From Candidatus Hydrogenedentota bacterium (GTDB lineage Bacteria; Hydrogenedentota; Hydrogenedentia; Hydrogenedentales; SLHB01), in NCBI GenBank assembly GCA_029552745.1, contig JAKPDK010000172.1:124001-188000 (forward strand): a stretch of DNA of 64,000 nt. The letters run 5' to 3'. The notes below the pieces were generated by a model that was not told the DNA's origin, made no database searches, and saw only the letters and a program-made list of their open reading frames with translations. Each line of letters begins with the position of its first letter. Positions within the stretch are counted from its first letter, which is position 1. Position numbers and translations under genes: made by a program. Shown one piece after another: positions 2,296 to 64,000 of this stretch.

Positions 2296-2300
2296 AGCCG

Positions 2301-2684
2301 TTATCTCTTCAGTAGACGGTTGATCTCACGCAAAAGTTGCTCAAAACGAACCGGCTTCGCCAAAAGGGCATCCGCCTTAATCCAAGAACGTTCTTCTTGC
2401 GTCGCGGCGTCAAATTCCATACCGGTCTCACTGGCAACTCCCGTAACCATAATAACAGGAATAGCCGGGTTCTTGCGTTTAATATCACGTGCCAAAACGA
2501 AACCCGCATCCAGATCTTCCATCATCAAGTCCAGAACAGCCACATCAAAGGTATTGGAATCCACGATTTGTTTTGCTTTTTGTCGGTTGTCAGCTTCCAA
2601 TACTTCAAAGCCGGCATGTTCCAGCTGCAACTTCTGCTGCATCAGAAAATCCGGATCATCATCAACGATCAAGACTCGTATCAT
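2301..2684 (-). CDS. Single-domain response regulator
   Basis: CheY-like protein of 127 residues made of a receiver domain only. It has the acidic cluster [11 protein letters not shown], the phospho-acceptor Asp in VAVLDLMMED, and the conserved Lys in LLAKPVRF. There is no output domain, so it probably relays phosphate or binds a partner rather than DNA. Its ATG overlaps the 3' end of the upstream sensor kinase gene by 23 bases and has a GAGG ribosome binding site within that gene, which suggests translational coupling. The likely phosphodonor is the hydrogenase-domain kinase encoded just before it. Confidence 0.85.
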   Translation of the reverse strand: MIRVLIVDDDPDFLMQQKLQLEHAGFEVLEADNRQKAKQIVDSNTFDVAVLDLMMEDLDAGFVLARDIKRKNPAIPVIMVTGVASETGMEFDAATQEERSWIKADALLAKPVRFEQLLREINRLLKR

Positions 2685-46624: not shown

Positions 46625-47164
46625 TCATCGTGTCGCGGTTCCGGCTTTTGCTTCTTTGGCTTGCAGCACAAAAGTTTTTCCGTACTGTTCCGACCAAATT
46701 TCCACGGAATTATTCGCGGCATCGATACGATTTAACCGAAAGTTTTCAAATTGCTCCCCTTCTTTGTAACGCTTCGGACGTCTCCCTTTTGTTAGCAACT
46801 CCGCCCGATATTCGTTTTCCTTCCAGGGCACAATCCGTACGAGCGTCACGCCTATTGAGTCTGCAGTAACCTCCTGCGGTTTCGACTCGTCAACCGGTCT
46901 GCCGTACACGGTAAACATGTTGCTTCGTATCAAGGATTCTTTTGGGGGTTTCGGCACTGCCGGACGCACAGGGGGCTTCGGCGGCGCCCCGTTCCAATCT
47001 TCCGGTAAATCTGACTTGACCGGCGGATGTACTTTTGCTTGTTGGGGTTCTGCGCCCATCACAACGCGATACGTGCGGACACATAGAAATAGAACGAGAA
47101 CAACGAGAACAACTTTCTCTTTGTTCCGCCACAACCACACGCCGAACTTATACAGCTGGTCCAT
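46625..47164 (-). CDS. PilP/GspC-like pilus assembly protein
   Basis: A 179-residue protein with an N-terminal membrane anchor (VVLVVLVLFLCVRTYRVVMG), a Pro/Lys-rich linker (PPKPPVRPAVPKPPKE) and a small C-terminal beta domain (GVTLVRIVPWKENEYRAELLTKGRRPKRYKEGEQFENFRLNRIDAANNSVEIWSEQYGKTFVL). This layout is that of GspC/PilP homology-region proteins, which link the inner platform to the secretin periplasmic domains. It lies between pilO and pilQ, where pilP is expected, though sequence similarity is not obvious. An AAAGGA site lies upstream. Confidence 0.75.
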   Translation of the reverse strand: MDQLYKFGVWLWRNKEKVVLVVLVLFLCVRTYRVVMGAEPQQAKVHPPVKSDLPEDWNGAPPKPPVRPAVPKPPKESLIRSNMFTVYGRPVDESKPQEVTADSIGVTLVRIVPWKENEYRAELLTKGRRPKRYKEGEQFENFRLNRIDAANNSVEIWSEQYGKTFVLQAKEAKAGTATR

Positions 47165-47207: not shown

Positions 47208-48143
47208 CTAAAATGGCAATATTTTTTTCCACCAGGACTGCTTCTTCTCTGTTGCGGTGCTACCTGTGCCTGATTGACCGGATGAACCTAAACCAAACCC
47301 GCCAAATGGGGAACCGCCGCCAAAGGGTGAGGCACCGGGTGCACCACCACCAGCAACGGCAACTGTAGCCGGCGCCGCCGTTTCATCAAACTTGGCACGT
47401 GTTAACACCATCGCAACTTCCAATAACGGGTCGGCTGATAGCCGCAAGCTTCGATTCGCTATACGAATCGCATTGATATTGTAATATTGCCGTGGATCTC
47501 CGGTGAGATTATCAATGAAATCCACCAGATTACGCAATGTCATAGAAAAAGAGAGCCCAACGGATCGCATTTCCAAAGTGCCTTGCTGCCAAGGGGGCCA
47601 CACTTCTATGGCAAATATCTGCACGGCGCCATTGTTCATTAACAAACGTACCGTATCCGAACCAAAAGCAATGAGCTGCAACCAAGCATGTACCTCTTCG
47701 GCGGTGGGCGCCCTGCCCGTCAACGTAGAAGGAGCAGGCGCCCCAAAGGAGGTTTGGGGGAAATACACGCCTTTCTGGTAGGTTTCTTGTAACAAAGTAG
47801 CGAACATTTGATTGTATTGTTCTTCGTAATGGAACCGTGGTATTTTCCCCTCAGGAACCGGAACGATTTCGGTAGCGGTTCCTAAATTGAATATCTTTTT
47901 TCGGTCATTGACAGCCTCTACCCACGGTTGAACCGCAGCGCTCCAAACTTCCAACACGCGATCGGGTCGGGTGTTCGAAAACTTCGACTCCAGCTCCGAC
48001 AATTTTTTCTCCAAATCTTGGTAGACTTTCTCGTCTTCGGCATACTGCTGAAGACGTTCTTTGAAGTAAAATTGATACCCACCGCCGAGCACTGCAGCGA
48101 GTATCACTAAAATTATCGCGAGAAATACCGACTCTCTATACAT
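47208..48143 (-). CDS. PilO-like pilus assembly protein
   Basis: A 311-residue protein. One N-terminal membrane helix (VFLAIILVILAAVLGGGYQFYF) is followed by a coiled coil (YAEDEKVYQDLEKKLSELESKF) and a periplasmic alpha/beta domain (ending FSMTLRNLVDFIDNLTGDPRQYYNINAIRI), as in PilO, which pairs with PilN in the inner membrane alignment complex. The tail (GGGAPGASPFGGGSPFGGFGLGSS) is Gly/Ser/Phe rich and not typical of PilO. It lies 79 bases after the pilMN fusion gene. The sequence ends in a basic KKQSWWKKILPF. Assigned by topology and gene order. Confidence 0.78.
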   Translation of the reverse strand: MYRESVFLAIILVILAAVLGGGYQFYFKERLQQYAEDEKVYQDLEKKLSELESKFSNTRPDRVLEVWSAAVQPWVEAVNDRKKIFNLGTATEIVPVPEGKIPRFHYEEQYNQMFATLLQETYQKGVYFPQTSFGAPAPSTLTGRAPTAEEVHAWLQLIAFGSDTVRLLMNNGAVQIFAIEVWPPWQQGTLEMRSVGLSFSMTLRNLVDFIDNLTGDPRQYYNINAIRIANRSLRLSADPLLEVAMVLTRAKFDETAAPATVAVAGGGAPGASPFGGGSPFGGFGLGSSGQSGTGSTATEKKQSWWKKILPF

Positions 48144-48222: not shown

Positions 48223-50472
48223 TCAGTACTCTTCTTCCTCTTCTTCCTCTGCGGAGTAGGAAACACCACCGCCCATGACAGCCTCTTTCGGTTCAGAAAA
48301 CTGTAAATCCATTTTGAATGACACAATATAGAATCCAGGGTACGTGAGCTGAATACCTGTATTGGATGCGCCGCTCGAATAAGGCACTACCCCGCCACCC
48401 CCTCCTCTATACCTTCGTTCACCGTCTTCATCGCCCCATTCCCCAGCGGCACCTGGCATCATGCCTGGCGCCATACCGCCACCAAAAGCCCCGCCCCGCT
48501 GCGAACCACTTGAGACATCCGCGTTGTCCAAAGCGCTGATATCCACCTTGTTGACCGATCGTTCATCCAAATAGACACCGTTTTCGACAAACTTACCGCT
48601 TTCGAGTAATCGCTGCTTAAACGCTAAGACCGTCTCCGGATCGGTTGCATACCCCCGAATGAGAAAACCGTTCGGGCGAATACCGGCTGGTATGCCCGGT
48701 AGTTTCTGATTCAGTTTGGACGCCCCGCTCGTGGGCAGTCCTCCACCCATCATCCCAGCCATCATATCACCCATGCCGCCCATGCCCCCGGGACCTTGAC
48801 TACTCGCACCCCCCGAAATCAGTGGCGTAATACCCGGAAAACCGGAACTTGCTATTTGTGGTTGTTCCCGTTCCGTCATGGCACCTGGTCCTGCCGCGCC
48901 CATGCCACCCAGACCTGCAGCAAAGGGGTTACCCATGCCACCCATCATTCCCATAGGCCCAGCTGCTCCCGCGCCACCGGGACCAACAACGGAAGACTCG
49001 ATGCAACTAATCCAAACGGATTTACCCTGCTCCTTCGGACGTGCTTCGTTGATTACATTAAGATATTCCAACCAAATGACTCTGTCCTTAATTGCGTTAT
49101 CCAGTTCCGCAACGATGTTTTGTTGCGCCGTGACTCTGCTTTGCAGGTCCGCCAATTCCTTTTCGTATTGAGATTGCAAGCCGGCGACGTTCTTAGAATT
49201 GAGCATTGGTAAGAGGCGGGGATCATACTCAGCCAAACGCGATTTCAACTGTTCAATTTTTTCTAACGTTCGCTTGTGCTCGTTTGCTTTTGATGGAATA
49301 ATCGTCAGGAACGTAAGCGCCACAGCAACCGCAATTAACCCCCAATAAAACACTTGCTCTTTTCTGCGGGCGGCTTCCCTCACTCGAGGAGGTATCAAAT
49401 TGACCTCGATGGGCGCCGCCTCAACACACCGCAATGCAAGCCCTAAAACGACAGCGGCTTGCTCAGGATGTTCATTCACCTGTTGCGCACCGGGTCCGAT
49501 AGCCAATCCCGCCAACGGTTGCGCAATTCGGACCTCTACCCCCAGTTGGCGTTGCAAATAGGGAACAATGTTCTTGAGACACGCGCCACCGCCCGTTATG
49601 ATGACACGCGAAACCGGACCGCCGCCGGGCTGTGAACGATAGTAAGAGAACGAACGGTTTATCTCGCCCACGAGTCGGCTAAGTACTCTGCCGATCACTT
49701 CCCCCAGTTTGCCATCACGGTTGGGGTCACCCGTAGGTGCGAACCCCTTTTCACGTTTGGTTCGCTCGGCTTCCTCAAAACTCATACCAAACTCAGAGCT
49801 GATCGCCCGAGTAATGTCATTTCCACCCAGACTCAGCGGTCTGTTCCAACGGAACTGGTTTTCCCGCTCAATGACAATTTCCGTGGTCGCCGCGCCCAGG
49901 TCAATCAGGGCAACGCATTCACCCTGGTCTCCAAACTCGCCCGCATACTTCAGCCAATTGTACGCAGCAAGCGGGCACACGTCGACCGTGTCGATTGCCC
50001 GCTTAACGTCCCGGATGATTTCAAGGTAACGCTCGACGATATCCACCTTGATGGCGGTCATCAAGACGTAGTACCCTCCCCCTTCCGTTCTATCCAAGAC
50101 CTGAAAATCCATGGCGATCTGGTCAAGTGCAAAGGGGATCTGCTGTTGAATCTCGTAACGAACGATCTGCGTGAGTTTGAACTCAGGCACAGGGGGTAAC
50201 GTGCGGGGACGCGTGAAGACCGATTGACCCGGGACCGCCATAACCACCTTGCGCGACCTCACTTTTGCCTCTTTCAGCAAAGCGCGCAAGGCTTCCGCGC
50301 GCATAGCACGCCGCGTGGGTTCATCGGTGGAGGGATCGATCACTAGCTCACGTTGAAAATAGCGAGACAACTGCAAGCCCGTCTTCGTACGGGTCAATTC
50401 ACACAAGCGTATGGCACTGCTTCCTATGTCGAGTACCAGTCGCTTCTTTCGGGCACGTTTTTGTTTCGCCAT
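48223..50472 (-). CDS. PilM-PilN fusion protein
   Basis: A 749-residue fusion of two pilus proteins usually encoded apart. Residues 1-345 are PilM, an actin/FtsA-like ATP-binding protein: LVLDIGSSAIRLCEL, VVMAVPGQSVFTRP, QIPFALDQIAMDFQVL, VALIDLGAATTEIVI, RVIITGGGACLKNIVPYLQ. From about 355 it is PilN: the conserved VNLIPP start, a membrane helix (QVFYWGLIAVAVALTFLTIIP) and a coiled coil. Then come Gly/Met/Ala-rich stretches (GPMGMMGGMGNPFAAG, GGMGGMGDMMAGMMGGG, GGGMAPGMMPGAAG) and a ferredoxin-like PilN domain, ending in an acidic run EEEEEEEY. The PilM-PilN contact in other species is normally made by the PilN N-terminus, which here is fixed covalently. First gene of the operon. Confidence 0.92.
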   Translation of the reverse strand: MAKQKRARKKRLVLDIGSSAIRLCELTRTKTGLQLSRYFQRELVIDPSTDEPTRRAMRAEALRALLKEAKVRSRKVVMAVPGQSVFTRPRTLPPVPEFKLTQIVRYEIQQQIPFALDQIAMDFQVLDRTEGGGYYVLMTAIKVDIVERYLEIIRDVKRAIDTVDVCPLAAYNWLKYAGEFGDQGECVALIDLGAATTEIVIERENQFRWNRPLSLGGNDITRAISSEFGMSFEEAERTKREKGFAPTGDPNRDGKLGEVIGRVLSRLVGEINRSFSYYRSQPGGGPVSRVIITGGGACLKNIVPYLQRQLGVEVRIAQPLAGLAIGPGAQQVNEHPEQAAVVLGLALRCVEAAPIEVNLIPPRVREAARRKEQVFYWGLIAVAVALTFLTIIPSKANEHKRTLEKIEQLKSRLAEYDPRLLPMLNSKNVAGLQSQYEKELADLQSRVTAQQNIVAELDNAIKDRVIWLEYLNVINEARPKEQGKSVWISCIESSVVGPGGAGAAGPMGMMGGMGNPFAAGLGGMGAAGPGAMTEREQPQIASSGFPGITPLISGGASSQGPGGMGGMGDMMAGMMGGGLPTSGASKLNQKLPGIPAGIRPNGFLIRGYATDPETVLAFKQRLLESGKFVENGVYLDERSVNKVDISALDNADVSSGSQRGGAFGGGMAPGMMPGAAGEWGDEDGERRYRGGGGGVVPYSSGASNTGIQLTYPGFYIVSFKMDLQFSEPKEAVMGGGVSYSAEEEEEEEY

Positions 50473-50722: not shown

Positions 50723-52117
50723 TTAGCGTTTTCTCGCATCGCGGGACCCTTCCTTCACGCTCAAAGCACAGCGAAAACCGTAGTCCGCGCGTTTGGCATC
50801 CATATGGTCGTAATATCGCCGAGCACAACGGACATCAAAGGCGCCTGTCATAAAAGAGCCGCCTCGCAAAACGCGAAACACTTGACCGTATTCTTTAATA
50901 ATATCCTTGTTTCCCGGGTAAGCTTGATACCAGTCCGATGTCCATTCGTAGGCATTGCCCGCCATATCCATGCAACCGTAGGGAGAAGCTCCCGCCCTGA
51001 AAAAACCCACAATCATCGGTTTCGCCCCTGGAGTGGCGGCAGAATTGCAGAATTTCGCATCAAATACATTTCCCCAAGGGAATTCACGTCCGTCCACGCC
51101 TCGGGCGGCTTTCTCCCATTCCAGCTCGGTTGGAAGACGTTTCCCCACGGCGGCGGCATAGGCCGTCGCTTGGTGCCAAGACACCCCTAAAACAGGTAAG
51201 TAATCGGCATCCGCCGGGTACTCGTGATCCGGAAATACTTGTTTGAATTGTTTGTTGGTCACTTCATACTTGTCAATATAAAAAGCATCCAAATATACCA
51301 CCCGTTTGGGGCGTTCATCGGGCGAGCCGCCGTCTACCCCTACGATAAACTCGCCTGCCGGAACGAGCACCATACCCATCGGGGCATCACCAGCTTCCAA
51401 CACAAACATCAGTTCTTGTTCCGCGTTCGATTCCAGGATAATTGTCCGTTCCGACATGACATAACCATTGGCATACACCGTGACGGTGTACGTTCCGGGC
51501 TCTAAATCAAACTCCGCAGGAGTACGTTTGTCTTGTTCAACAAAGTTTAGAAATATTTGAGCTCCCGTGGGTCTGGAGTACACCCGCAGTTTGGAAGGCC
51601 GAGGTTGTAATTCGTACGAAAAGTTATACCGAAAATCTTTTTCGACCTCGATTTCGGCCTGAACGGGGAAATAGTCTTTCCGCTCTACGAGGAGCGTATG
51701 TTTGCCTATTGGCACTTTTGCCTCTCGGAGGGGTGTCGTTCCCAAATGTTCAGTGCCATCTACGATAACATCTGCGCCATCCGGGATGGAGTAAACCGTG
51801 ATATACCCGACAATGGGTTCCATATCCAACACGACGCGTGTTTCTTCTCCGGGAAGTAGATCGATTGTCTTCCACGCCCGTTTGTAATTTTCCTTTTCCA
51901 CCTCAACAACCACCCGCCCCGGCGGAAAATTAGAAAATGTATGAGGTGTTTCCCCCATAGGTTGGCTGTTCAAAAAGATCTTCGCCCCACTCTCCGGACG
52001 GCTTGCGACCGTAAGCGTACAGGGGGTGGCTGCCTCACGCGAACCCAAACCGCATCTCGTAGTCCCGGTAAGAACCGTGAGACATATAAGCACGCGAAAC
52101 GCCCATTTGCAGTACAT
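50723..52117 (-). CDS. PEGA-repeat lipoprotein with SUMF1-like domain
   Basis: A 464-residue predicted lipoprotein (signal MYCKWAFRVLICLTVLTGTTRC). Three PEGA domains follow: TLTVASRPESGAKIFLNSQPMGETPHTFSNFPPGRVVVEVEKENY, YITVYSIPDGADVIVDGTEHLGTTPLREAKVPIGKHTLLVERKDY and KLRVYSRPTGAQIFLN...LEPGTYTVTVYANGY. The C-terminal half (about 245-455) has the formylglycine-generating-enzyme fold: MVLVPAGEFIVGVDGGSPDERPKRVVYLDAFYIDKYEVTNKQF, RLPTELEWEKAARG, EFPWGN, MAGNAYEWTSDWY, VLRGGSF. The two catalytic Cys that follow RGGS(F/Y) in true enzymes are absent (FMTG...), so it is probably a binding or structural member. ATG 52117 is chosen over a GTG three codons earlier. Confidence 0.85.
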   Translation of the reverse strand: MYCKWAFRVLICLTVLTGTTRCGLGSREAATPCTLTVASRPESGAKIFLNSQPMGETPHTFSNFPPGRVVVEVEKENYKRAWKTIDLLPGEETRVVLDMEPIVGYITVYSIPDGADVIVDGTEHLGTTPLREAKVPIGKHTLLVERKDYFPVQAEIEVEKDFRYNFSYELQPRPSKLRVYSRPTGAQIFLNFVEQDKRTPAEFDLEPGTYTVTVYANGYVMSERTIILESNAEQELMFVLEAGDAPMGMVLVPAGEFIVGVDGGSPDERPKRVVYLDAFYIDKYEVTNKQFKQVFPDHEYPADADYLPVLGVSWHQATAYAAAVGKRLPTELEWEKAARGVDGREFPWGNVFDAKFCNSAATPGAKPMIVGFFRAGASPYGCMDMAGNAYEWTSDWYQAYPGNKDIIKEYGQVFRVLRGGSFMTGAFDVRCARRYYDHMDAKRADYGFRCALSVKEGSRDARKR

Positions 52118-52245
52118 CTTTGTCACCCGAGTTGACGATCTCCCTACCCCGCACCGAGCGACAGTATTTTATTTGCCCGACGACATCGCCCCTGAGATGA
52201 CTATCATCATCCCTCTATGTCTATCAAAACATTACCTAGGGCTGG

Positions 52246-55200
52246 TTACATTTCCTCCATGCTCTTGATAGGCTGTTTATCGTAATCCCTCTTTGGATCG
52301 ACAGGATACGGCGTGACAACAAACGACACGTTTGCCCACGTCGGATCGCTGCGCTCACCCACATCATACTGGCCGTTGTTATTGTCATCAACGAAAGCCG
52401 ACGCGCGGAACACGTAATGAAGAATTTTCTTTGGCGGTGGGGGATAATCGCCCAGCGTCCGTGGGAAAGGACCCGGCGTCGGCACTATTGTGTCCCCCGA
52501 CAACGCTATACCGGAACGAATACGAACATTCTCTTCAAGAAGTTCCCACACGATCTTCAGACGTTCCGCCCCCGGCCCGATATACTTCGCCTCGAGAAGA
52601 AAACTCGCTTCCACGTTGGGTCGGTTGCTGTTTGCGGGCGGCATGACAATATAGGGGTTTGACCCCAGATTAATGTCCCCGTCATTGACGCTTAGATTGC
52701 CGTCCAAGTCGCCGTACCAATAGGTCGGCGTGACGAACGTGTCAGGTTTGGGCACGCCAGACCACTGGAATCGGCGCCAATTGGGCAGTTGTAAAGCGCG
52801 CGCCCGCCTATTAGCGCCCAACTCACCGGAGACGGTGAAATCGACCGGCTGGTCGGGCGGATCAAAAATATCTGAGGGCCAAGGCTCCACATTCCCTGCT
52901 TCATCGCATCCGAGCACCACCAAGAGCACCCAAAACTCTTGATTGTCCGGGTCCCAACCGGCGGCACGCAATGGATAGTAGAAATCATCCGGACCGAGTT
53001 GTCGATTCGTCGACCACGGTGACCAGCCCGTCACCGGACGGTAGACTCCATCGTATTGGTTTTGTTCCGGAGGAGTCATCGCCGTGGCATAAATCCGATA
53101 CATATACCCGGGTTTAGGACCGAAATAGGTTCCGGGGTCATAGGCACGGTCGGGACCCCACCGGAAATTAGGCCGATTCGTCTGCGCCGCTTCCCCAACT
53201 CCCACTTCGATTTTGGTCTGCATTTTCAAGAGCCACCATATATGAAGCGGGTCCAGCAGCAATTCACGTTCGGCGATATTGCCCGCCTGGTCTTGTGCGC
53301 GAAAACGTATCGCCAGATGGAACGGTTTGTCCGTCTCGTAGCTACGACGCACAGCATCCCAATCCAGGTCACTTAAATCCCACCGGGCGACTAGGACGTT
53401 ATTGTCATGATAGGTCGTTGCGGTGGGGTCATCACGACGGAAACCCTCGTTTCTCTTGTAATTAGAAGTCACGGTAACAGAAGGCGCCACCGCCGCGGTC
53501 ACAGAGGTACTGTCTTGTTCAGGCGTGAACTGCCCCGAAAAGCTTGCCAAATTCGTCGCCGCGGCCTGAAAAACCGTGCGTCCTTCGTCGAAAATCCAAT
53601 GCGCCTCACCGAATTCGAGGGCGTTCAAGTTACGCGTGTCTGAAAAGGCATACGGCTTAAAGCCAGACACTTCTCTTGTATCCGCGCTCGTAAATCTGTC
53701 CTCATTGGGTTGGTCCGCAAAGGAACCGCTTTGTCTTCCAGCCATTATCAGGTTCGCCGGGTCACTGTAGGGCGCGGCAGACAACACCGTAACATGCGGG
53801 TCCACAAAGCGCACCACGATGTCCATGTCGAGGTCCTCGCGAGGCAACCCATTGGACAACGAACCTACATTGAACAAAATCTGTGCTTTTGACGGACCGG
53901 GTGTAAGTGTGCCGCCGACACGGAACGGATTAATGATGACGCCGTTGTATTCGACCGGCGCACGATTTAACGGATTTGATGTATCCGCAGGAGAATAGTA
54001 TTGCCCGAACATGTAAGCGGGCGGTAACGGGAATGGATGAGTTCCCGGTGCCACATTGTTCGAGTTCGGGAAATACTCGTCATTGTGCGTCGCGCCATTT
54101 TCGGCCTGATATGGCACAAGGTTCCAGGGGAGTATTTGCTCGTCAGGGTACGCCTCTATTTGAATGCGAGGGGGCACCGTGTCAATCAGGAAATGTCTTC
54201 CATTGATCGCTTGTTCTACAATCACGTCGCCATCGGTGAGATCGACCGGGTCATCGCCCAAAAGCAACCTGCCGATGCCCGAAACCCCTGCCGGCATATC
54301 TACGCAGATTGTCGCGTGCCCATCCGCAAGGATGTCGCCCCATTGAGGCAACGTATCCGGCCCTGGAGGCGGTCCACCCTGCCTGAAAACAACGGTATTG
54401 ATTGCATCCGTATTGGTCAGAATGTAAGACCACCCGCCGAGTTCTTGCACGAATTTCAGGGGGATACGATGATCGGGACTCTGGGGCTCACCCCCTTGTG
54501 GGACGATGAAAACGCGTTGGTCCGGCGGCGGAAAGTCTCCCGACGACATCAACGATGCGCGCAACCCTCGGAACCGCACCTCAATGGTCAGAGACTCTTT
54601 CGGCAATTTCCCCACGGGATTTGGCAAGACTTCGGCGTAGTACCATTCCAGCCGGTCAGGACCATAGGGCAATTCATCCGCACCGATTTCCGACAGGGCT
54701 TGGTTCACCGGACCTGTTCCGTGGATATTGCGGTCAGGACCATTCGGCCGGTTGTCCAGTTCCAAGTCTTCACTGGTGAAGGGCGATAACTCGATTTTGC
54801 CCGCCTTATCACGCACAGGGTTGTCAAACGTATCCGAACGAACCGCTAATTTCCCCAGCCACCAATTCTGCGGCGCAGCGACGATCATGCGAGGCCCCGG
54901 GGTATGAATCGTCACGGGGCCCGGATCCAACAAGGGATCCACCGAAATACTGCCCTGACCTGGTTTCACATTGACGTAGTCTCTGTAGTTGATGAATACG
55001 TCGTTAAACTCCAATATCGGTACGCGCGGTTTGATGGGGCGGTCGTATCGGTCCGGATCGTAATAATAGATCGGCCCGCCGTTGTTGCTTTTCACCCGCA
55101 CAGGTTCGCCGAATTCCACCCGATTAACTACCCGAACGGCGGCAATCCGTACCACACCGTTAACGCCACCGTAACGTCCATCAAAGTCCGCATCAGTCAA

Positions 55201-58200
55201 ACCAAGACCCTGTCGGGGTTGGTCGCCGTTCCAAGCCGGTGCCACCACAGCAATTTCGAAGGGGGAAATGCTAAAGAATTCGTTACCAAATGTTTCTGGC
55301 GTGTCATCCCCGTCAATATCAAACTCTACACCAACCACGTCATCAAAATTGAATCCGCGAATTGTGAAATAGGTGGCGTCTTTGGGATTTTGCACCGTGG
55401 AAACCGTGTCTTCCCGATTGACGTGATTTGGTTGAATCTCAGTAATTACGGGAGCGCCGTCCATAACATAGACAAAACGTTGATCGTCTGGTGCGCGTCC
55501 CTCTTGCAGCCAGGTATTGCCGCCGATTATACGCTGCGAAATCACCGTCACATCCACCGTGCCCGGCAAACCCTGCGGCGCGGGTGGAGTCAAAACGTAC
55601 AATGCCGTATCCGGATTGCCGGGGACCGTATATGTTGTCCCATTGCGATGCACAAACGGACCAGGTGGCAACACGCGTGCTTCCGCACCCCCAAAACGCA
55701 CTCGGGGCGGCGCAGTGCCCGGCTGGAAATGGTTACCCTCAATCGCCACAAGGTCTCCGCCGAGAACCTCACCCCACCGCTGATCGGGGAAAGGTTGAGA
55801 ATTGGTCGGCGGGTCAAAATAACCTTGCAAGTCAACACGATACACGCGCGTGACCTCTGGCGGCGAGGAGTCCATCAAAACAAGAGCCGCCGGCAACACA
55901 AAGGTCAATGGCGTGCCATTACTGTCCGTCAGAACAACCCCATTTTCATCCACGTGCTCCACACGAACGTCCAACGCCTTATTTCTTGGAAATGCCGTGG
56001 TATTACTAAACACGGCATGAGTGGTCAAATCCACAAACTCAAAGGAGATCTCTGTCGGCGACACGACCTGGTACTTATTAACACCGATTGGATAAGGCTT
56101 TTGCGCATCGATTGAGTCCAAGAAAGCATCCAATGCTGGGTCCGTGGTTGTATCTGTAGGCGAAATCAGTGGGACCCACACATTGCTCTGGGTGCGAATG
56201 CTTATCCGAGTATAGGTCCCATTAGCACTTGGAGGATACGGGCCGATAAAGTCGGCACCGGAAACGCGAACGCGCACGCCGCCGGTGTCGGGAATGGTGC
56301 GCGGCGTAACGGCATAGGCGCGCGGTGGGACCACATCACTGTTCGCATCGACACGCGGAATCCAAAGGGCATCCTCGGCAACCCAGTAGAGGTCGGTATT
56401 GAGCGGATTATTTTCTGTATTTTTCGGCAACACCACCGTGACATCCGCGGGTCCTACAAAACCACGGTCACGAAGGTCAGGCACACCGTTGTTATTGGCA
56501 TCCGGCAAGCGGAACGAAACGGTATTCCCGCTGACGACACGATCCGCCGCCACTACCTCATCCCCTTCGACAAACAACCGCATGTTGTTTGTCCAATACG
56601 TCAGGTCTGCTTCAGCAAAATAAGGGTCTCCGGCAGGACGACGACGAACCGCGGTAATTTCAAAATAACGGGCTTCCCCGGAGTCAGGTGGGTCTTTGTC
56701 TTGCGCCCAGGCGAATTGAGTCTCAATACGCGGCCTGCCGAGACTTAGAGGTAGATAGACACCCTGTGCCGACCGTACATTCGCAATATATACATCCACC
56801 AAACGTACCGCATCGGCAAACCGTTGACGGAAGAGGGCGGAGGTCTCGTCCGCAGGCTCCTGCCGTGAGGGGCTACCCGGCATCCGAAACTTAACAATAC
56901 GTTGGGTATGCGATGCGTGCTGCCGCTGCAACTCATCCGGCAGGACACCATTACCGTTGGTGATTCTTCCTGCTATATCGTTGTTGCTATAAACGCCGTT
57001 CGCGGCATATGCGATCAACAAGCCCGCATCGAGCCCCCGAGCCAGAAGAGTACGTTCTGAATCAGCGCCTCCTGAATCCAGTCGGGCAAAATTCGCCGGC
57101 CTCCAAACGAAGTCCGTGCTGCGGTCAATACGCGGCGCAGTGTCCGCATAGTAGGTAAACGCATTCGGCAACACGTCCCGCTGCCCGTCATAGTTAATCA
57201 CTTCCACGTCATAAGAGCCGCCGGCACCAAACTCTGCCACCGGCACCCGCACATCGCGGATTTCGTCAAACGAATCGCCGTTCACATCGTTCTCACCTTG
57301 CCATATGCCGTTGTCGGAGTTTTCGGCAGAGCGCAGGGGTGCGGGCGGCGACGACTCGCGTTTAATTTCTCGGTAGGGACACACAATGCCGCCGATTTTT
57401 ACGATGACCGGCATGGGATACCACTGTCCTGAACCGGGAGGAATTTCAAGCATGCTAGGACCAAAATTCCATCCGATGATGTCTACGGTAACTTCCCTCC
57501 CGGCTCCCGCGGCAACTGACCCGTCAAGGTCACGATAAAAGTTTGGCGTCACCTGTGCAATTGAAGGACGCGGCAATTCAGGTGCCGCCCGGTACTCATA
57601 CTCCTTCAATCTACCGCCGCCATCGTTCAAACCCGAACCTAAATTGCGTACAAACACGTCAATTTTCCCATTGGTTGGGGTAGGCCATTCCGGGACCTTT
57701 GCATAGAGCTTGCTTGAAGAAAGCCAGATAACACGCTCGGATTGGGAATCTTTGGTCGAACCGACGGTTTGGAGTCCGGCAACGCCGTTGGTGTCCCACC
57801 ACACTTCGCATTCTTTTTCAAAACGTGCGCCATACACAAAGACCCAGTTCCCGCGTCGTTCGGTCGGATCGATTTGATTTTGTTTCGAAGTGGGTGTAGT
57901 CGGACCCCATTCGGGCAGTACCTGGGTCACTTCCGGCGGGTCAGTCGAGGCGGGAACTGTCCCTTCCACGTATGTGAAGGCGTTTCGCACGACCATTTCA
58001 AAACCGTCTTCCCGCAAGATATGGACATCGACAGGTCCCGGCGCGCCCAGATAGGACGGCGGAAGATAAGCGCTTAACGTCTGTTCACCGTCTACCGTTC
58101 CCGTGAATAGCAGGGTTGACGGGGTCGCGTGCCACAAGGTGACGGGTACCGTCTCTGTCCCATCCGTTCGCGTGGGGACATCCCCCATGGGACCAAAGTA

Positions 58201-59274
58201 CACGCGCGTTCCTATGGGATTGTCGATGTCACTGACAAGTCCATATCCGCGCAAGGTAACCCTTACGGCGCTTGGGTCTGGCGGCGAAGGCACGTTATAC
58301 GGCGCTTGATTGGGCGAAATAAACAGATCACTTTCCCAGACAAGCCCTCCTTCTGGAGCCGTGAACCCCGGCGCAGGCGCGTCTAAACCGTCACCGTTAC
58401 GATATACGACCGTGTTGCGGACCCGCGCGTTGGCTGCCTGATTGGTACGTGTCGCACCATTTTCAATGTACACGCCGTAATTCTCGTTCATCACTACCGT
58501 ACAGAAGAGCATGTCGGTGAAAAAATCAGCCGCTGGATTCGCAGGGGGACGCACATGCACCCCGACCAAACTGTTGTAACGTTCGGAGGCTTGCTGCTTT
58601 TGATAACCGCCAATGCTGCAATTGACCAACAGAGGCGCCGCATTATCCTGGATCATCACGCCGGCTTGAGACACCTGCGTTCCGTTCGGGTTGCTCCCGA
58701 GAATAATGCAGCGGCTGATGGTAGGACGTACAGGCGGATCGGTTGGGCTCGAGTTCTGATACGAAGGTATCGCCGCCCCGGTACCTTGAATCCAAATGCC
58801 ATATTGGCCATTGCGAAATGTCAAGCCTTCTATGAGCAGTCGGCTTAGGTTTGTGTCCGGATCTGCCGATGGATTGTAGCGAAACGCCGGTGTGAGCGAA
58901 TTGCTCGTATGGATGGTCAACACGGCGCCGCCGCCCGAAACGCCGCCCCCGTCCACGATGACTTCCCACGGACGATTTGCCGGCAAGCCACGAACATACA
59001 GGTCGGCATCCGCTGGTATGGAGAGAGTTTCGTTATAAACTCCTTGTTTCACCCAGACGGCGGCACGCTGGTTTGTAGTACGTGACAAACTCACCGCCGC
59101 ATCAATGGCGCCTTGAATGGTGGTATACACGCGGGGTCCGGGCGTTGCGTTGGGATCAACGAGAAAGACGTTCGTAGGGACAACTTCTTGCGACCACGCC
59201 TCAATCGTCACGGCAAACATCACCGCGAGAACCATCGGCGCCCAAGGTAGACCTGATCTGAAAACATGTCGCAT
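52246..59274 (-). CDS. Giant secreted beta-helix/TIG-repeat protein
   Basis: A 2342-residue exported protein. ATG 59274 has a GGAG/AAGGA site and opens a signal peptide (SGLPWAPMVLAVMFAVTIEAWS). The N-terminal 300 residues look like a right-handed beta-helix (DUF1565-like: VYTTIQGAIDAAVSLS...VWVKQGVYNETLSIPADADLYVRG). Several IPT/TIG-like Ig modules follow, each opening with a Pro-x-(V/I)-x-x-(V/I)-x-P pattern: PEVTQVLPEWGPT, PSIAQVTPNFY, PRAYAVTPRTIPDTGGVRVRVSGADFIG, PVITEIQPNHVN. Near the end are calcium-loop/dockerin-like DLDGNLSVNDGDINLG and DDNNNGQYDVGE. It is likely a surface or released adhesin-like protein; the ligand is unknown. It lies 58 bases after the next giant gene in the same direction. 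Confidence 0.82.
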   Translation of the reverse strand: MRHVFRSGLPWAPMVLAVMFAVTIEAWSQEVVPTNVFLVDPNATPGPRVYTTIQGAIDAAVSLSRTTNQRAAVWVKQGVYNETLSIPADADLYVRGLPANRPWEVIVDGGGVSGGGAVLTIHTSNSLTPAFRYNPSADPDTNLSRLLIEGLTFRNGQYGIWIQGTGAAIPSYQNSSPTDPPVRPTISRCIILGSNPNGTQVSQAGVMIQDNAAPLLVNCSIGGYQKQQASERYNSLVGVHVRPPANPAADFFTDMLFCTVVMNENYGVYIENGATRTNQAANARVRNTVVYRNGDGLDAPAPGFTAPEGGLVWESDLFISPNQAPYNVPSPPDPSAVRVTLRGYGLVSDIDNPIGTRVYFGPMGDVPTRTDGTETVPVTLWHATPSTLLFTGTVDGEQTLSAYLPPSYLGAPGPVDVHILREDGFEMVVRNAFTYVEGTVPASTDPPEVTQVLPEWGPTTPTSKQNQIDPTERRGNWVFVYGARFEKECEVWWDTNGVAGLQTVGSTKDSQSERVIWLSSSKLYAKVPEWPTPTNGKIDVFVRNLGSGLNDGGGRLKEYEYRAAPELPRPSIAQVTPNFYRDLDGSVAAGAGREVTVDIIGWNFGPSMLEIPPGSGQWYPMPVIVKIGGIVCPYREIKRESSPPAPLRSAENSDNGIWQGENDVNGDSFDEIRDVRVPVAEFGAGGSYDVEVINYDGQRDVLPNAFTYYADTAPRIDRSTDFVWRPANFARLDSGGADSERTLLARGLDAGLLIAYAANGVYSNNDIAGRITNGNGVLPDELQRQHASHTQRIVKFRMPGSPSRQEPADETSALFRQRFADAVRLVDVYIANVRSAQGVYLPLSLGRPRIETQFAWAQDKDPPDSGEARYFEITAVRRRPAGDPYFAEADLTYWTNNMRLFVEGDEVVAADRVVSGNTVSFRLPDANNNGVPDLRDRGFVGPADVTVVLPKNTENNPLNTDLYWVAEDALWIPRVDANSDVVPPRAYAVTPRTIPDTGGVRVRVSGADFIGPYPPSANGTYTRISIRTQSNVWVPLISPTDTTTDPALDAFLDSIDAQKPYPIGVNKYQVVSPTEISFEFVDLTTHAVFSNTTAFPRNKALDVRVEHVDENGVVLTDSNGTPLTFVLPAALVLMDSSPPEVTRVYRVDLQGYFDPPTNSQPFPDQRWGEVLGGDLVAIEGNHFQPGTAPPRVRFGGAEARVLPPGPFVHRNGTTYTVPGNPDTALYVLTPPAPQGLPGTVDVTVISQRIIGGNTWLQEGRAPDDQRFVYVMDGAPVITEIQPNHVNREDTVSTVQNPKDATYFTIRGFNFDDVVGVEFDIDGDDTPETFGNEFFSISPFEIAVVAPAWNGDQPRQGLGLTDADFDGRYGGVNGVVRIAAVRVVNRVEFGEPVRVKSNNGGPIYYYDPDRYDRPIKPRVPILEFNDVFINYRDYVNVKPGQGSISVDPLLDPGPVTIHTPGPRMIVAAPQNWWLGKLAVRSDTFDNPVRDKAGKIELSPFTSEDLELDNRPNGPDRNIHGTGPVNQALSEIGADELPYGPDRLEWYYAEVLPNPVGKLPKESLTIEVRFRGLRASLMSSGDFPPPDQRVFIVPQGGEPQSPDHRIPLKFVQELGGWSYILTNTDAINTVVFRQGGPPPGPDTLPQWGDILADGHATICVDMPAGVSGIGRLLLGDDPVDLTDGDVIVEQAINGRHFLIDTVPPRIQIEAYPDEQILPWNLVPYQAENGATHNDEYFPNSNNVAPGTHPFPLPPAYMFGQYYSPADTSNPLNRAPVEYNGVIINPFRVGGTLTPGPSKAQILFNVGSLSNGLPREDLDMDIVVRFVDPHVTVLSAAPYSDPANLIMAGRQSGSFADQPNEDRFTSADTREVSGFKPYAFSDTRNLNALEFGEAHWIFDEGRTVFQAAATNLASFSGQFTPEQDSTSVTAAVAPSVTVTSNYKRNEGFRRDDPTATTYHDNNVLVARWDLSDLDWDAVRRSYETDKPFHLAIRFRAQDQAGNIAERELLLDPLHIWWLLKMQTKIEVGVGEAAQTNRPNFRWGPDRAYDPGTYFGPKPGYMYRIYATAMTPPEQNQYDGVYRPVTGWSPWSTNRQLGPDDFYYPLRAAGWDPDNQEFWVLLVVLGCDEAGNVEPWPSDIFDPPDQPVDFTVSGELGANRRARALQLPNWRRFQWSGVPKPDTFVTPTYWYGDLDGNLSVNDGDINLGSNPYIVMPPANSNRPNVEASFLLEAKYIGPGAERLKIVWELLEENVRIRSGIALSGDTIVPTPGPFPRTLGDYPPPPKKILHYVFRASAFVDDNNNGQYDVGERSDPTWANVSFVVTPYPVDPKRDYDKQPIKSMEEM

Positions 59275-59332
59275 GGTTTCCTTCTCCGCACGGTGTGTTT
59301 TCAATGATTTTTGGTGAATCATCTGCAAGCGC

Positions 59333-62300
59333 TTACCTCTCGTATACCGTACGCAGTTTACTTTCACCTGTCACCACAAAATCATTCCGGAAATCGATTC
59401 TCCCGTCGCCGTTCAAGTCGCGATTGGACACAAACCCGCTCTGACCCAGCGCATAGATCTCAAATAGGTCGGAACGGGTAGTAATGAGGTTCATCATGCG
59501 AGAGAATCGAAAGACTTTTTCCTCGTATTGTGCCGCGATATTTCCACCCGCCGTGTCTGCCACCAACGTGTCGGTGAATGCCAATTGCGGGGACCCTGTC
59601 ACATCGGTCGTCAGCAGGTCCGCAAGCAAGTCATAGTATCTACCGTCGGGATGCACGGGGCGATTGAACAACACACGATTGGTCTTCGCAAGGGCAACAC
59701 CGGGGCCTATGTAGTCAGACTCGGAATAATACTGATAACTAAACTGACCGGTAGTGGGATTGTACGTAAAGTTACGCGCTAGAATACCCGGCACACCGCT
59801 CAATACGTTGGCAAGATCGCCTCCCTCGTTGCGCGTGTCGACGGTGTTGATATTGATCTTGCCCGGCGTGCGCTCGACTCCCGTCAAAATCACCCGCGAA
59901 AAGCGGTTCAAAGCGCCCCCCTTCGCCCAGTTTCGTAAGAACACTGCCAGATAATTGTTCTCGACACGCACCCTACCGAAGTAAATCAAGCCTTCGGTAT
60001 TCGGCTGTGCGGCTTTCAAAGACCCAAGCATTTCGTCGGTGTTCAAATTACCCGGCAGGGGATAGCGGTCATCTTTCCAACACCGGCGGTTTCCGTCACG
60101 GTCGGTATAAACCGCAACGGTGATACCCAATTGCCCCGGTGCGGTGTTGCGTGCCGCATCGAGCACATCGGTACCCTGGAACGTGCCATTCGTGTTCGGC
60201 GTAAAGAGCGATTGTTTTTGCGCTGGGGTCAACGTGTCGAGACGCGTCAAGTCATCCGCTGTGGCGAGATATAGATCGTACCAACCGTTTTCCACACCAT
60301 CGTTTATATCCCACACAAACAACGCTTCCGCCACACTAGTGTCATTCCACGTCGCATGCGGCACGTTGTCCGGAGAATTTTGACTCGGCTCAAACGTGGA
60401 GGCGTTCGACGCAACGTACATCACAGGACGCTGGACAAGCGGCCAGCGCGCCCGCAACGACGTGTACCATTCTGTGAGATTTGCGAACCCGGGGGGCACC
60501 GTAGTCGGCGGATTTAACAAGTAATTTGCTTGAACGCGAATATTCGGCACAGGTCCAAAATTATCCACCCAGGCACCATCTACACCGTCTCCCAAGTTGA
60601 ACAAGAAAATAGGCGTCCAAACTCGCGGGAACTTGCCGGCGTTCCGGTCCCACGAACTCAACAAACCGTACTCCGCCGGGGACCCAACTCCGTTTGTTTC
60701 GGGCCTAGGCCAGATGGGGTAAAACTCCGCTGTGGCACATGACAATGTTTGGGAACAATTCGCACCAATGGAAAGAAGGGCGCGAATATCCAGGGCGCTC
60801 AGCGTCGGGTCGGTGAGATGAGGCGCACGTCCGACAAGCAGTTGATTCGGCACCGTGAGCCCGGGCGGACGCACGTCTCCCACGGTCGTCAACGCGCTTG
60901 TCATGGTAAAGTGCGGCAACCGCACCAGCTCCCCGGGAGAACTGTAGGGACGGTTTCGTACGACCGCACGAGGCAAATGCCAATAGGGAACCAACGTCGG
61001 GTCCCGCAGAATACGCACAGGCCGTTCGTCCCGAGGCGGGCTGAACTGCACGTTCTGGAATTGCGCCGTGCGAACGTCCTCCGCCTCGGCGGGGAGCTTG
61101 TCTTCGAAGGCACGTTGGAAGAAATTCATCCGCAAGGGAGAACCCGGAACACTATGGGCGTACCGCTGGTACGCGTGCGTCCCGTAGCCGCTATCCCACC
61201 GTACCTCTCCGGCAACCCCGAGCCAAGCCGGACCCATGCCGCTATCCCAGTCGTCGTAATTCCCATCTGTGGCTTCCCAGCGGTTGGTTGTACCAAAACG
61301 ATCGCCGGTATAGAGCGGGTGTTTGCGTTCCAGAGAGCGGTAGAAATCGACGCCCATCGTGTTATCGGGCCACATATAAGGATTTCTCGGGTCGAGCGTC
61401 GCACGTGTGCCATTTTCGTTTACATAAGGACACGCCAACGTGTCATTGATAGCGCGATTCTCCACATCACGTTGGGTATAGGTCACACGGTCCACCACAC
61501 GGTTGTCCGCCGCCAACCCCTGATAAAGCGTCACGACAACACAGTCCCCCGGGAAATACCGCCGCTCAATGAATTCTTTCCATTCTGGCGGCTCCGTACC
61601 GTTGGTTAGCCCTACAAACCCCTCTGCATTGAATCCACCCGGCACTCCCACTGCGTTGCCGGCACGCCGCGACTCCCGCAAGTATCGCCCCTCATCCACA
61701 CCTTCATAAGGCTCATCCACAATACCGTTCCCGTTATTATCGATCTCGTCGCTGGTCAAGACCGCATTGTCGTCATCGTTGTCGGCGCCATCTTCGTCAG
61801 GATAGTTTGGAAACACGCCGCCCCGCAGTAGCAGACGCGCCAACGCATCAAGGGAGGACCCGCCGACACCCATCGCCTCCAGTTCCGCATTTTGGAGTTG
61901 TACAATACGATCCCATGGTTTCTGAGCGACATTGGCAATGCCGTAACTCTCATGAGCGAAAGGCGCGCTGGATTCCACCGCGTCATCGGTCGTACCGACA
62001 TCTGCGGCGCCGTCGCCATTTCGATCAACAAAGTCCGCCAGCGTGTCTCGATAAAATATGCTCGGCGCAATCGGCGCGTTAATAGGTGAACTTGGATTGG
62101 CAGTCGGGAAAGGCGGTACGGTTATACTCGATGCGAGTGGAGATCCGGCGATACCAAATAGCGGGAACAAGGGAGGATTATTTGTTGCGCACATTCCTAT
62201 GCCGTTCCGATGGAGTATACTTTGTGTCGCGTATTGCCCGGTTGCTGCGCTGAACAGGTGCGCACCGTAGTCAAACTTGTCGACGGTCAGAAGTAAGGAT

Positions 62301-64000
62301 CCGCCCGCGGCAATCTTCGTACCGTCAGGAATGGTGAAGAGACGATGGTCATCTTCGCCACCTGCCCCGCCGGGACTACCCACCTGCAGTTGCCAACCGC
62401 TCAAGTCTACGTATTGGCTCTCCGGCGGCAGATTTGGGTCTGGCGCGCCGGCATGAACGATTTCCACATATTCGTGGTCCGGCTCCTGGCTGAACTCAAA
62501 GAAATTGATTACAAGGTCTTCGTCAGGGTCTTCGTCTTTCCAGATGGCAACGTATAAATACTCCTGCTCGGTAGAATTTGCCGCATACGGCGGGATGACT
62601 ACCGTATACGCCTCAAACTCCGGGCGATTACCATACGCCGCGCGAGGACCAGTCAAGCTAGTATCTGGCTCCGCTAAGCCCGGCAAAAACACCCAGCCCG
62701 TGGGATGTTCTATCCCATTGGCGTCCCGTACTGTTCCTACGATGGGTGTGCGTGTCAACCCTTGATCGTTGTTAAGAAAGTCTATGTAACCGGTGGAATC
62801 GCCAATAGCATCATAAACAATATCGTCACCTGCTCGGCCATATTTAAACGTAAACCGCATATGGCCTTCTCTGCCGGGCTGGACGGTTGCCGTATCGGCA
62901 TTACCATTCTTTGTGGTATTTGCAAGAAGGTAATACCGTCCGGGCGGAAGCCCTGGTCCCGGACCAAAACGCCATTGGACTAGATTGGGCACCTCATGCG
63001 ACCTGACAACCTGACCGTTCTCCCAGTAGTCGGCCCAGCGCAATTTCGTGGCGCCTATGCGATAATCCGTGTACCCGTCGTCGCCCGGTCTTTGGCAGGG
63101 AGCCTGGAAAGCAACATACGACGGCTCCCCAATATGGGGCGGCGTCGGCTGGTCATTAGTTTCATTGCCATCACCATATTTGCTCGGAGCATCCAAACGT
63201 CCCATCACGCTTAAGCAAGGACCGAATGGTACTGCGGCAGGAGGCTCGTTCGATTGCGGAATACCACCGGGCCACTCCGTACCGATCCCGACAGGAACAT
63301 TTCCATTGAACGCCTCTATGACGCGGTCCAACGGCAGGACACGCCGCCGCACGTCAAAATCCGCCTTATCAAACTCTGGACCGGAAAATCGATTCGGGTC
63401 GAACTGGACCTGACTGGCATTGGGCGGGAACAACACATTATTTCCGGGCTCCGTCCACGCCTCCGCCTCTACCCGCCGGGTGGCACGGACCATGATCTCG
63501 TTGATTCGAATACTTTCGACCCCTGCAAACGTGTAGGAAATACGGCGTTGCCTTAACCCGTTGACAGGCGCCCAAGGGTCTTCTACCGCGGTGGTAAGGG
63601 TTGTCCGAACATAGTCAAGGTCTCGGTTGTCGACAACATCCACACCTAACTGGTATGCGCGGAGTTCCCCATCAAACGGAATGCGAGCGCCGTTTGGAAA
63701 AACATAGGATACGCCTTCTTGGCGAAGCCCCGCCTCGAGACCGCCAAGAGCGAAAGGAAACGTCGAGGGACGATAGGGCCAGTCGTTGATAAGCGCAGAG
63801 GCAATCTGACCTGGAAATGCATAATTGTAATCGAGTTTTCTGCCGCTCACCGTGGGGAGAGGCAACGGGGCGCCGCCCCGGTCATAGTATTGATAGCGGT
63901 CGTTGCTGTCAGCCGAATTGACCGTTACCAAATTGCGAATGGCAGAAAATATACCGCCAGCAATTCCCGAAAGATCTTTGACGCCCTCGCGTGTTGAAAA
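59333..64000 (-). CDS. Giant protein with lamin-tail-like and GspK-like parts, 5' end beyond window
   Basis: The frame stays open to the right window edge, so at least 1555 residues are encoded and the start lies outside; the visible beginning is FSTREGVKDLSGIAGGIF. A lamin-tail-like domain is suggested by IRINEIMVRATRR and HEYVEIVHAGAPDP...YVDLSGWQL...RLFTIPDGTKIAAGGSLLL. Calcium-loop-like runs include DRNGDGAADVG, DNDDDNAVLTSDEIDNNGNG and DLNGDGRIDFRNDF. The C-terminus contains RTPGKININTVDTRNEGGDLANVLSGVPG and ends FVVTGESKLRTVYER, recalling GspK-type minor pseudopilins (G-K-I-N-I-N-T and a terminal helix). It is probably exported and may be a tip or surface protein of the secretion/pilus system. 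Confidence 0.8.
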   Translation of the reverse strand, partial: FSTREGVKDLSGIAGGIFSAIRNLVTVNSADSNDRYQYYDRGGAPLPLPTVSGRKLDYNYAFPGQIASALINDWPYRPSTFPFALGGLEAGLRQEGVSYVFPNGARIPFDGELRAYQLGVDVVDNRDLDYVRTTLTTAVEDPWAPVNGLRQRRISYTFAGVESIRINEIMVRATRRVEAEAWTEPGNNVLFPPNASQVQFDPNRFSGPEFDKADFDVRRRVLPLDRVIEAFNGNVPVGIGTEWPGGIPQSNEPPAAVPFGPCLSVMGRLDAPSKYGDGNETNDQPTPPHIGEPSYVAFQAPCQRPGDDGYTDYRIGATKLRWADYWENGQVVRSHEVPNLVQWRFGPGPGLPPGRYYLLANTTKNGNADTATVQPGREGHMRFTFKYGRAGDDIVYDAIGDSTGYIDFLNNDQGLTRTPIVGTVRDANGIEHPTGWVFLPGLAEPDTSLTGPRAAYGNRPEFEAYTVVIPPYAANSTEQEYLYVAIWKDEDPDEDLVINFFEFSQEPDHEYVEIVHAGAPDPNLPPESQYVDLSGWQLQVGSPGGAGGEDDHRLFTIPDGTKIAAGGSLLLTVDKFDYGAHLFSAATGQYATQSILHRNGIGMCATNNPPLFPLFGIAGSPLASSITVPPFPTANPSSPINAPIAPSIFYRDTLADFVDRNGDGAADVGTTDDAVESSAPFAHESYGIANVAQKPWDRIVQLQNAELEAMGVGGSSLDALARLLLRGGVFPNYPDEDGADNDDDNAVLTSDEIDNNGNGIVDEPYEGVDEGRYLRESRRAGNAVGVPGGFNAEGFVGLTNGTEPPEWKEFIERRYFPGDCVVVTLYQGLAADNRVVDRVTYTQRDVENRAINDTLACPYVNENGTRATLDPRNPYMWPDNTMGVDFYRSLERKHPLYTGDRFGTTNRWEATDGNYDDWDSGMGPAWLGVAGEVRWDSGYGTHAYQRYAHSVPGSPLRMNFFQRAFEDKLPAEAEDVRTAQFQNVQFSPPRDERPVRILRDPTLVPYWHLPRAVVRNRPYSSPGELVRLPHFTMTSALTTVGDVRPPGLTVPNQLLVGRAPHLTDPTLSALDIRALLSIGANCSQTLSCATAEFYPIWPRPETNGVGSPAEYGLLSSWDRNAGKFPRVWTPIFLFNLGDGVDGAWVDNFGPVPNIRVQANYLLNPPTTVPPGFANLTEWYTSLRARWPLVQRPVMYVASNASTFEPSQNSPDNVPHATWNDTSVAEALFVWDINDGVENGWYDLYLATADDLTRLDTLTPAQKQSLFTPNTNGTFQGTDVLDAARNTAPGQLGITVAVYTDRDGNRRCWKDDRYPLPGNLNTDEMLGSLKAAQPNTEGLIYFGRVRVENNYLAVFLRNWAKGGALNRFSRVILTGVERTPGKININTVDTRNEGGDLANVLSGVPGILARNFTYNPTTGQFSYQYYSESDYIGPGVALAKTNRVLFNRPVHPDGRYYDLLADLLTTDVTGSPQLAFTDTLVADTAGGNIAAQYEEKVFRFSRMMNLITTRSDLFEIYALGQSGFVSNRDLNGDGRIDFRNDFVVTGESKLRTVYER

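What the first reader, a model, noticed from the sequence alone, without database searches (positions are those of the whole stretch)
52246..64000. Two giant linked secreted proteins, one ending like a pseudopilin
A 2342-residue TIG/beta-helix protein is encoded right after a protein of at least 1555 residues with lamin-tail-like and calcium-loop segments and a GspK-like G-K-I-N-I-N-T motif and C-terminus. Both lie upstream of the pilMNOPQ cluster on the same strand. A giant GspK-type subunit could cap a pseudopilus and present or export the second giant protein: a candidate surface-delivery system not described to my knowledge.
Basis: inference. Interest (0 to 1): 0.65.

Follow-up and report, generated by a model that had tools for sequence, protein, structure and literature searches.

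The report
Giant tip subunit of bacterial pilus
In a little-known bacterial phylum (Hydrogenedentota), the small protein that normally starts and caps a type IV pilus appears to have grown into a 2,000-3,000-residue giant, encoded next to a second large exported protein, so these pili probably carry a very large built-in sticky or receptor tip.

Summary
Beyond the window edge the first giant is complete at 2005 aa. It starts with a prepilin signal (NEKG|AALLIVV...) and lies just after major-pilin, FimT/GspH-, PilV/GspI- and PilW/GspJ-like genes behind pilB and pilC. Position +5 is hydrophobic in 14/14 giants read but Glu in 40/40 neighbouring pilins (Asp in this genome's PilW), the mark of the GspK/PilX tip cap. 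Both ends match canonical GspK by profile (E 2e-8 and 6e-7; 20 shuffled controls no better than 0.02); about 1,300 residues are inserted between (lamin-tail domain, CBM-like beta-sandwich, Ca-type loops). The family is found in 50 of 68 Hydrogenedentota genomes (complete frames 2,006-3,081 aa), with a ~1,035-aa version in Omnitrophota. The second giant (2342 aa, Sec signal) keeps its place: giant1-giant2-PEGA/FGE-pilM. The filament is a type IV pilus, not the pseudopilus: a separate T2SS with an ordinary 361-aa GspK lies next door. Closest precedents are GspK, PilX+PilY1 and Thermus ComZ. I read it as a new, extreme variant of a tip-capping modular pilin with a PilY1-like partner. Display of giant2 is inferred. 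Structure models were low-confidence.

The parts
59333..64000 (-). giant1: GspK/PilX-class minor pilin, 2005 aa; residues 451-2005 lie in the window, the gene starts at window-numbering 65350 (G000:C26:189350)
62276..62422 (-). giant1 residues 977-1025: best stretch of the lamin-tail domain (weak in this member; 11 of 13 homologues hit)
59876..60763 (-). giant1 residues about 1530-1825: confident part of the model, beta-sandwich resembling CBM6/35/61 and laminin/ephrin-type jelly rolls (weak matches)
59843..59863 (-). giant1 residues 1830-1836, GKININT: helix-hairpin-helix motif of GspK type
59336..59539 (-). giant1 residues 1938-2005: predicted helix plus beta-hairpin, position and pattern of the GspK C-terminus
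52246..59274 (-). giant2: 2342-aa Sec-exported TIG/beta-helix protein; ATG 59 bp after the giant1 stop
50723..52126 (-). PEGA + FGE-sulfatase-domain protein conserved between giant2 and pilM
48223..50472 (-). pilM (749 aa)
47208..48143 (-). pilN-like by position (no Pfam hit)
46625..47164 (-). pilO-like by position (no Pfam hit)
43064..46540 (-). pilQ secretin, 1158 aa, with TPR repeats in the N-terminal part

Best explanation
Giant1 is the tip-capping K subunit (GspK/PilX class) of this phylum's type IV pilus. It is a normal prepilin at its N-terminus (leader, hydrophobic alpha1, no Glu5) with a GspK-type head into which about 1,300 residues of adhesion-type domains (lamin-tail Ig fold, CBM-like beta-sandwich, calcium-type loops) are inserted, between a first GspK-like helical region (about 303-520) and a second helix-hairpin-helix plus C-terminal beta-hairpin (about 1826-2005). 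With the FimT/GspH-, PilV/GspI- and PilW/GspJ-like pilins encoded just before it, it would form the priming complex, be built in first and be pushed out through PilQ as a very large pilus tip. Giant2, exported by Sec and encoded next to it as pilY1 is next to pilX, would be loaded on or displayed by that tip as a PilY1-like effector. Shown: gene structure, prepilin signal, missing Glu5, ends homologous to GspK, conserved operon order, phylum-wide occurrence. Inferred: tip position, calcium and ligand binding, interaction with and display of giant2. Likelihood: giant1 as tip cap about 0.75; giant2 as its tip partner about 0.45.
For: Prepilin N-terminus and upstream pilin genes (PilV above its cut-off). 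GspK N-terminal model hit in 11/13 homologues. hhalign to canonical GspK: N-terminus E 9e-10 and 2e-8, C-terminal 121 residues of the Omnitrophota member E 6e-7, against a best of 0.024 in 20 column shuffles and 0.021 in other windows. +5 residue hydrophobic in 14/14 giant1, Glu in 40/40 other pilins of the same operons. PilX/GspK caps lack Glu5 and sit at the tip (PMC7541494, PMC10191384). Operon order pilB-pilC-pilA-FimT-PilV-PilW-giant1-giant2-FGE-pilM conserved across families. 50 of 68 phylum genomes. Separate canonical GspK in 27/28 genomes. Weak Foldseek match of the mini-version to the XcpGHIJK pseudopilus.
Against: Structure models are low-confidence (mean pLDDT 48 and 43), no Foldseek match reached E 0.001, and the pilin fold formed by N- and C-terminal parts together was not demonstrated. 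The middle GspK region (T2SSK_1st) is matched only weakly (about 20% probability). The C-terminal match is significant for the Omnitrophota member; the Hydrogenedentota profile alone gave only the NTA motif (17%). A 2,000-3,000-residue cap must pass the PilQ pore. One genome (L064) has a giant1 copy outside the pilus operon. No direct evidence links giant2 to the pilus beyond synteny.
Confidence: 0.7

Rival explanations
1. Same tip-cap position, but the tip is a DNA receptor for natural transformation, like Thermus ComZ: the inserted lamin-tail and helix-hairpin-helix parts bind DNA.
For: ComZ is a GspK-type tip pilin with a large inserted beta-solenoid that binds DNA (PMC6561018). HhH motif matched EEPD1. 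Lamin-tail domains occur in extracellular nucleases (titles and abstracts).
Against: The HhH-like motif is also present in ordinary GspK and explains itself by descent. The inserted beta-sandwich resembles carbohydrate-binding and adhesion domains. No competence genes were examined.
Confidence: 0.15
2. The giants are cargo or cap of the neighbouring T2SS, delivered through the GspD secretin.
For: A complete gspC-M cluster lies about 9 kb beyond giant1 on the same strand; GspK-type ends.
Against: The T2SS has its own 361-aa GspK, also in 27 of 28 relatives. Giant1 sits between type IV pilin genes and pilM in the operons read.
Confidence: 0.08
3. Giant1 is a pilin-like membrane-anchored surface or periplasmic protein that is not built into the pilus; synteny reflects co-regulation only.
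For: Size is extreme for a subunit that must pass PilQ; an isolated copy exists outside the operon (L064).
Against: Conserved position directly after the H-I-J-type pilins, missing Glu5 and single copy in most genomes.
Confidence: 0.1

Closest known systems
T2SS minor pseudopilin GspK (tip of GspH-I-J-K)
   Same: Prepilin N-terminus without Glu5; same order H-I-J-K in the operon; matching N- and C-terminal profiles; ININTA-type HhH motifs in the head
   Different: About 300-450 aa, belongs to the T2SS; giant1 has about 1,300 extra residues and belongs to the type IV pilus locus
Type IVa pilus PilX plus PilY1 (FimU-PilV-PilW-PilX-PilY1 tip)
   Same: Minor-pilin cassette whose last pilin lacks Glu5, followed by a gene for a large Sec-exported protein
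   Different: PilX is small; no PilY1 propeller model hit was found for giant2 or anywhere in 29 genomes, although that search had no positive control; in this system the pilin itself is giant
Thermus ComZ
   Same: GspK-type pilin with a large domain inserted into the pilin head, argued to be at the tip
   Different: 554 aa, beta-solenoid of about 380 residues, different insertion point; DNA binding shown for ComZ only
Modular pilins (S. sanguinis PilB/PilC; survey in PMC8179133)
   Same: Functional modules carried by a pilin
   Different: That survey used the Glu5-type N-methyl motif, which giant1 does not match, and its most extreme multi-domain example was 860 residues; here 2,006-3,081
Verru_Chthon cassette proteins A-D (TIGR02600, 02598, 02599, 02596)
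   Same: Large A protein with a GspK-like N-terminus beside B, C and D pilin-like proteins (cassette make-up partly from the model names, partly from memory)
   Different: Only the first 58 of 1296 model positions match (31 bits against a 332-bit cut-off); giant1 is not a member

Membership tests
Type IV (pseudo)pilins | Class III signal peptide: short charged leader ending in G, then a hydrophobic alpha1 | tested here: met
   NEKG|AALLIVVFLLLIVVLLSLTFYTASRTELR; same pattern in the homologues with a readable start
GspK/PilX tip-cap class | No Glu at +5 whereas the other pilins of the set have it | tested here: met
   14/14 hydrophobic in giant1; 40/40 Glu in neighbouring pilins; Asp in this genome's PilW
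GspK (NF037980, PF21687, PF03934) | Full-length model above curated cut-off | tested here: not met
   Only the N-terminal 78 positions match (30.5 bits against 130); no PF21687 or PF03934 hit. Hence GspK-related, not filed as GspK
GspK | C-terminal HhH/beta-strand region homologous | tested here: met
   Omnitrophota member E 6e-7 with shuffle controls; Hydrogenedentota profile alone inconclusive
GspK | Pilin fold with inserted alpha-domain | tested here: inconclusive
   Right order of elements in the mini-version model, but pLDDT 43
PilX (PF14341) | PilX_N above cut-off | tested here: not met
   23.2 bits against 25.5; 2 of 13 members hit
PilY1 (PF05567), for giant2 | C-terminal PilY1 beta-propeller domain | tested here: not met
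   Not among the Pfam hits of giant2; genome search also negative but without a positive control
Verru_Chthon cassette A (TIGR02600) | Full-length model above cut-off | tested here: not met
   31 bits against 332, N-terminus only
GspK/PilX tip-cap class | Physical presence at the pilus tip | not testable with these tools
   Needs an experiment

The most novel reading that the evidence does not exclude
Hydrogenedentota run a type IV pilus whose obligatory tip is a two-giant complex: a 2,000-3,000-residue K-type pilin with adhesion or receptor modules built into its head, and a co-encoded 1,000-2,300-residue exported beta-helix partner that replaces PilY1, so that the pilus serves to deliver a very large surface machine through PilQ.
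Probability: 0.35. Interest if true: 0.68.

Novelty: new variant of a known kind. Interest (0 to 1): 0.52.

Why it matters
It would be by far the largest tip pilin known to me, conserved through a phylum for which every genome record I saw is a metagenome assembly. It shows that the GspK/PilX cap, which surveys based on the Glu5 pilin motif do not see, can carry huge inserts. It makes a size question testable: how large a folded tip can the PilB motor and the PilQ secretin push out, and can the cap itself be the adhesin instead of PilY1? The 1,035-aa Omnitrophota version is small enough for biochemistry and structure work.

Tried and rejected
AlphaFold of window residues 870-2005 and of the whole Omnitrophota mini-version gave low confidence; used only for the order of elements and the one confident beta-sandwich. 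A fragment-based alignment (A4) misplaced pieces and was dropped for a full-length one (A5). PilY1 (PF05567) genome searches found nothing in 29 + 10 genomes, but none of the control genomes rang either, so absence is not claimed. The apparent 24,498-aa open frame beside a giant2 relative in G005 is a 72-kb run of N, so the missing giant1 there is not informative. PDB sequence searches with A1 and A2 gave no pilin hit. Rejected: giant1 as the T2SS GspK (a canonical one is present), as a Verru_Chthon A member, and giant2 as a PilY1 family member. Paper searches for Hydrogenedentota with type IV pili and for GspK with lamin tail domain found nothing on this system.

Full report
OBSERVATION. The window is G000:C26:124001-188000. 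The second giant (giant2) is 2342 aa from ATG 59274, window 52246-59274 on the minus strand, with a Sec-type signal, a TIG hit (1.8e-7) and a weak beta-helix hit. The first (giant1) is cut by the window edge at residue 451. In the assembly it is a 2005-aa ORF starting MAMQRNEKG|AALLIVVFLLLIVVLLSLTFYTASRTELR: a prepilin signal, not a standard Sec signal peptide.

NEIGHBOURHOOD. On the same strand before giant1 lie, in order of transcription, gspC-D-E-F-G-H-I-J-K-L-M (a complete T2SS with a 361-aa GspK), pilB, pilT, a second pilB, pilC, a major pilin-like gene (248 aa), a FimT/GspH-like gene (278 aa), PilV (129 aa, TIGR02523 above cut-off) and a PilW/GspJ-like gene (360 aa); then giant1, giant2 59 bp later, a PEGA/FGE-domain protein, pilM, pilN- and pilO-like genes and pilQ. 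Names of ATPase and platform genes (pilB, pilT, pilC, gspE, gspF) rest on reading their sequences, not on a model search.

FAMILY AND CONSERVATION. The genome belongs with Candidatus Hydrogenedentota: nearly all near relatives found in named genomes carry that name. Relatives of giant1 occur in 51 of 60 family and order relatives and, by a profile of residues 870-2005, in 50 of 68 genomes of the phylum, 32 of 38 of good quality, with complete frames of 2,006-3,081 aa. In 20 loci chosen for contig length, 18 have type IV pilus genes directly around giant1, one contig ends too early, and one (L064) has an isolated copy. A large exported protein follows in all 16 loci where the next gene could be read in full or nearly so: 15 match giant2 by BLAST, some weakly (E up to 4e-6), one only by its beta-helix domain. 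The PEGA/FGE gene follows that in all 12 loci long enough. Omnitrophota have a mini-version of about 1,035 aa, followed by a ~600-aa protein and pilM-N-O-Q in most loci long enough to show them; homology is strong for the first head region (hhalign 99.9%, E 7e-38).

CLASS OF PILIN. After the cleaved G, position +5 is I, V, L or M in all 14 giant1 sequences with a readable start and Glu in all 40 neighbouring pilins read (Asp in this genome's PilW). In type IVa pili and T2SS the tip cap (PilX, GspK) lacks Glu5 (PMC7541494, PMC10191384). The GspK model NF037980 hits the N-terminus of 11 of 13 members. Against an alignment of canonical Hydrogenedentota GspK, the N-terminal region scores E 9e-10 and the C-terminal 121 residues of the Omnitrophota member score E 6e-7, covering the INTA helix-hairpin-helix motif and the last strands. 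Twenty column shuffles, a reversed profile and other windows of the same protein gave nothing better than 0.02. The Hydrogenedentota C-terminus alone only recovers the motif. In both phyla the order of motifs is that of GspK, with the new domains placed between the first head region and the second HhH motif.

INSERT. The insert holds a lamin-tail domain (11 of 13 members; lamin Ig-fold matches to the mini-version model), a beta-sandwich at about 1530-1825 with pLDDT mostly 60-90 that weakly resembles CBM6/35/61, ephrin-receptor and laminin jelly rolls, and calcium-type loops above chance. Both AlphaFold models are poor overall (mean pLDDT 48 and 43), so the pilin fold itself remains unshown; a weak match to a pseudopilus model is noted.

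MECHANISM. The most economical reading is that giant1 is the K subunit of the H-I-J-K priming complex of the type IV pilus and carries its own adhesin or receptor in the head, while giant2 takes the place PilY1 has beside PilX: separately Sec-exported, encoded next to the cap. In Myxococcus PilY1 needs PilX for stability (PMC7541494), which is the model for the giant1-giant2 link; here that link rests on synteny only.

NOVELTY. Inserted domains in GspK-type tip pilins are known (ComZ, PMC6561018), as are modular pilins; the most extreme multi-domain case in the 2021 survey was 860 residues (PMC8179133), and that survey used a Glu5-type motif that giant1 lacks. I found no paper on this family. 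It is a new variant of a known kind, notable for size, position of the insert and phylum-wide conservation.

Noticed in passing
50723-52126 (-): A PEGA + FGE-sulfatase-domain protein (lipoprotein-like signals in several relatives) sits between giant2 and pilM in the loci long enough to show it; an unexplained constant part of this pilus operon.
   Followed up: partly
43064-46540 (-): PilQ is 1158 aa with TPR repeats in its N-terminal part, and PilM (48223-50472) is 749 aa, both longer than usual.
   Followed up: no
L003 4127-16215: Complete T2SS cluster next to the type IV pilus cluster on the same strand; the genome has seven secretin-domain matches in all.
   Followed up: partly
L064 3520-12309: Isolated giant1-like copy (2929 aa) next to an alpha-L-rhamnosidase gene, outside any pilus operon.
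   Followed up: no
L103-L112: Omnitrophota mini-version (about 1,035 aa) followed, in most loci long enough, by a ~600-aa Ig-like protein and pilM-N-O-Q; repeated jelly-roll-like stretches (W.W...DG.YY...G).
   Followed up: partly
L142-L146 (G005:C80): A 24,000-residue 'open frame' is a 72-kb run of N; not a gene.
   Followed up: yes
L054 13827-17654 and L055 3200-6625: The giant2 counterparts here start with lipobox-like signals (..VLGGC, ..VIGGC) instead of a plain Sec signal, suggesting outer-membrane lipoprotein versions.
   Followed up: no
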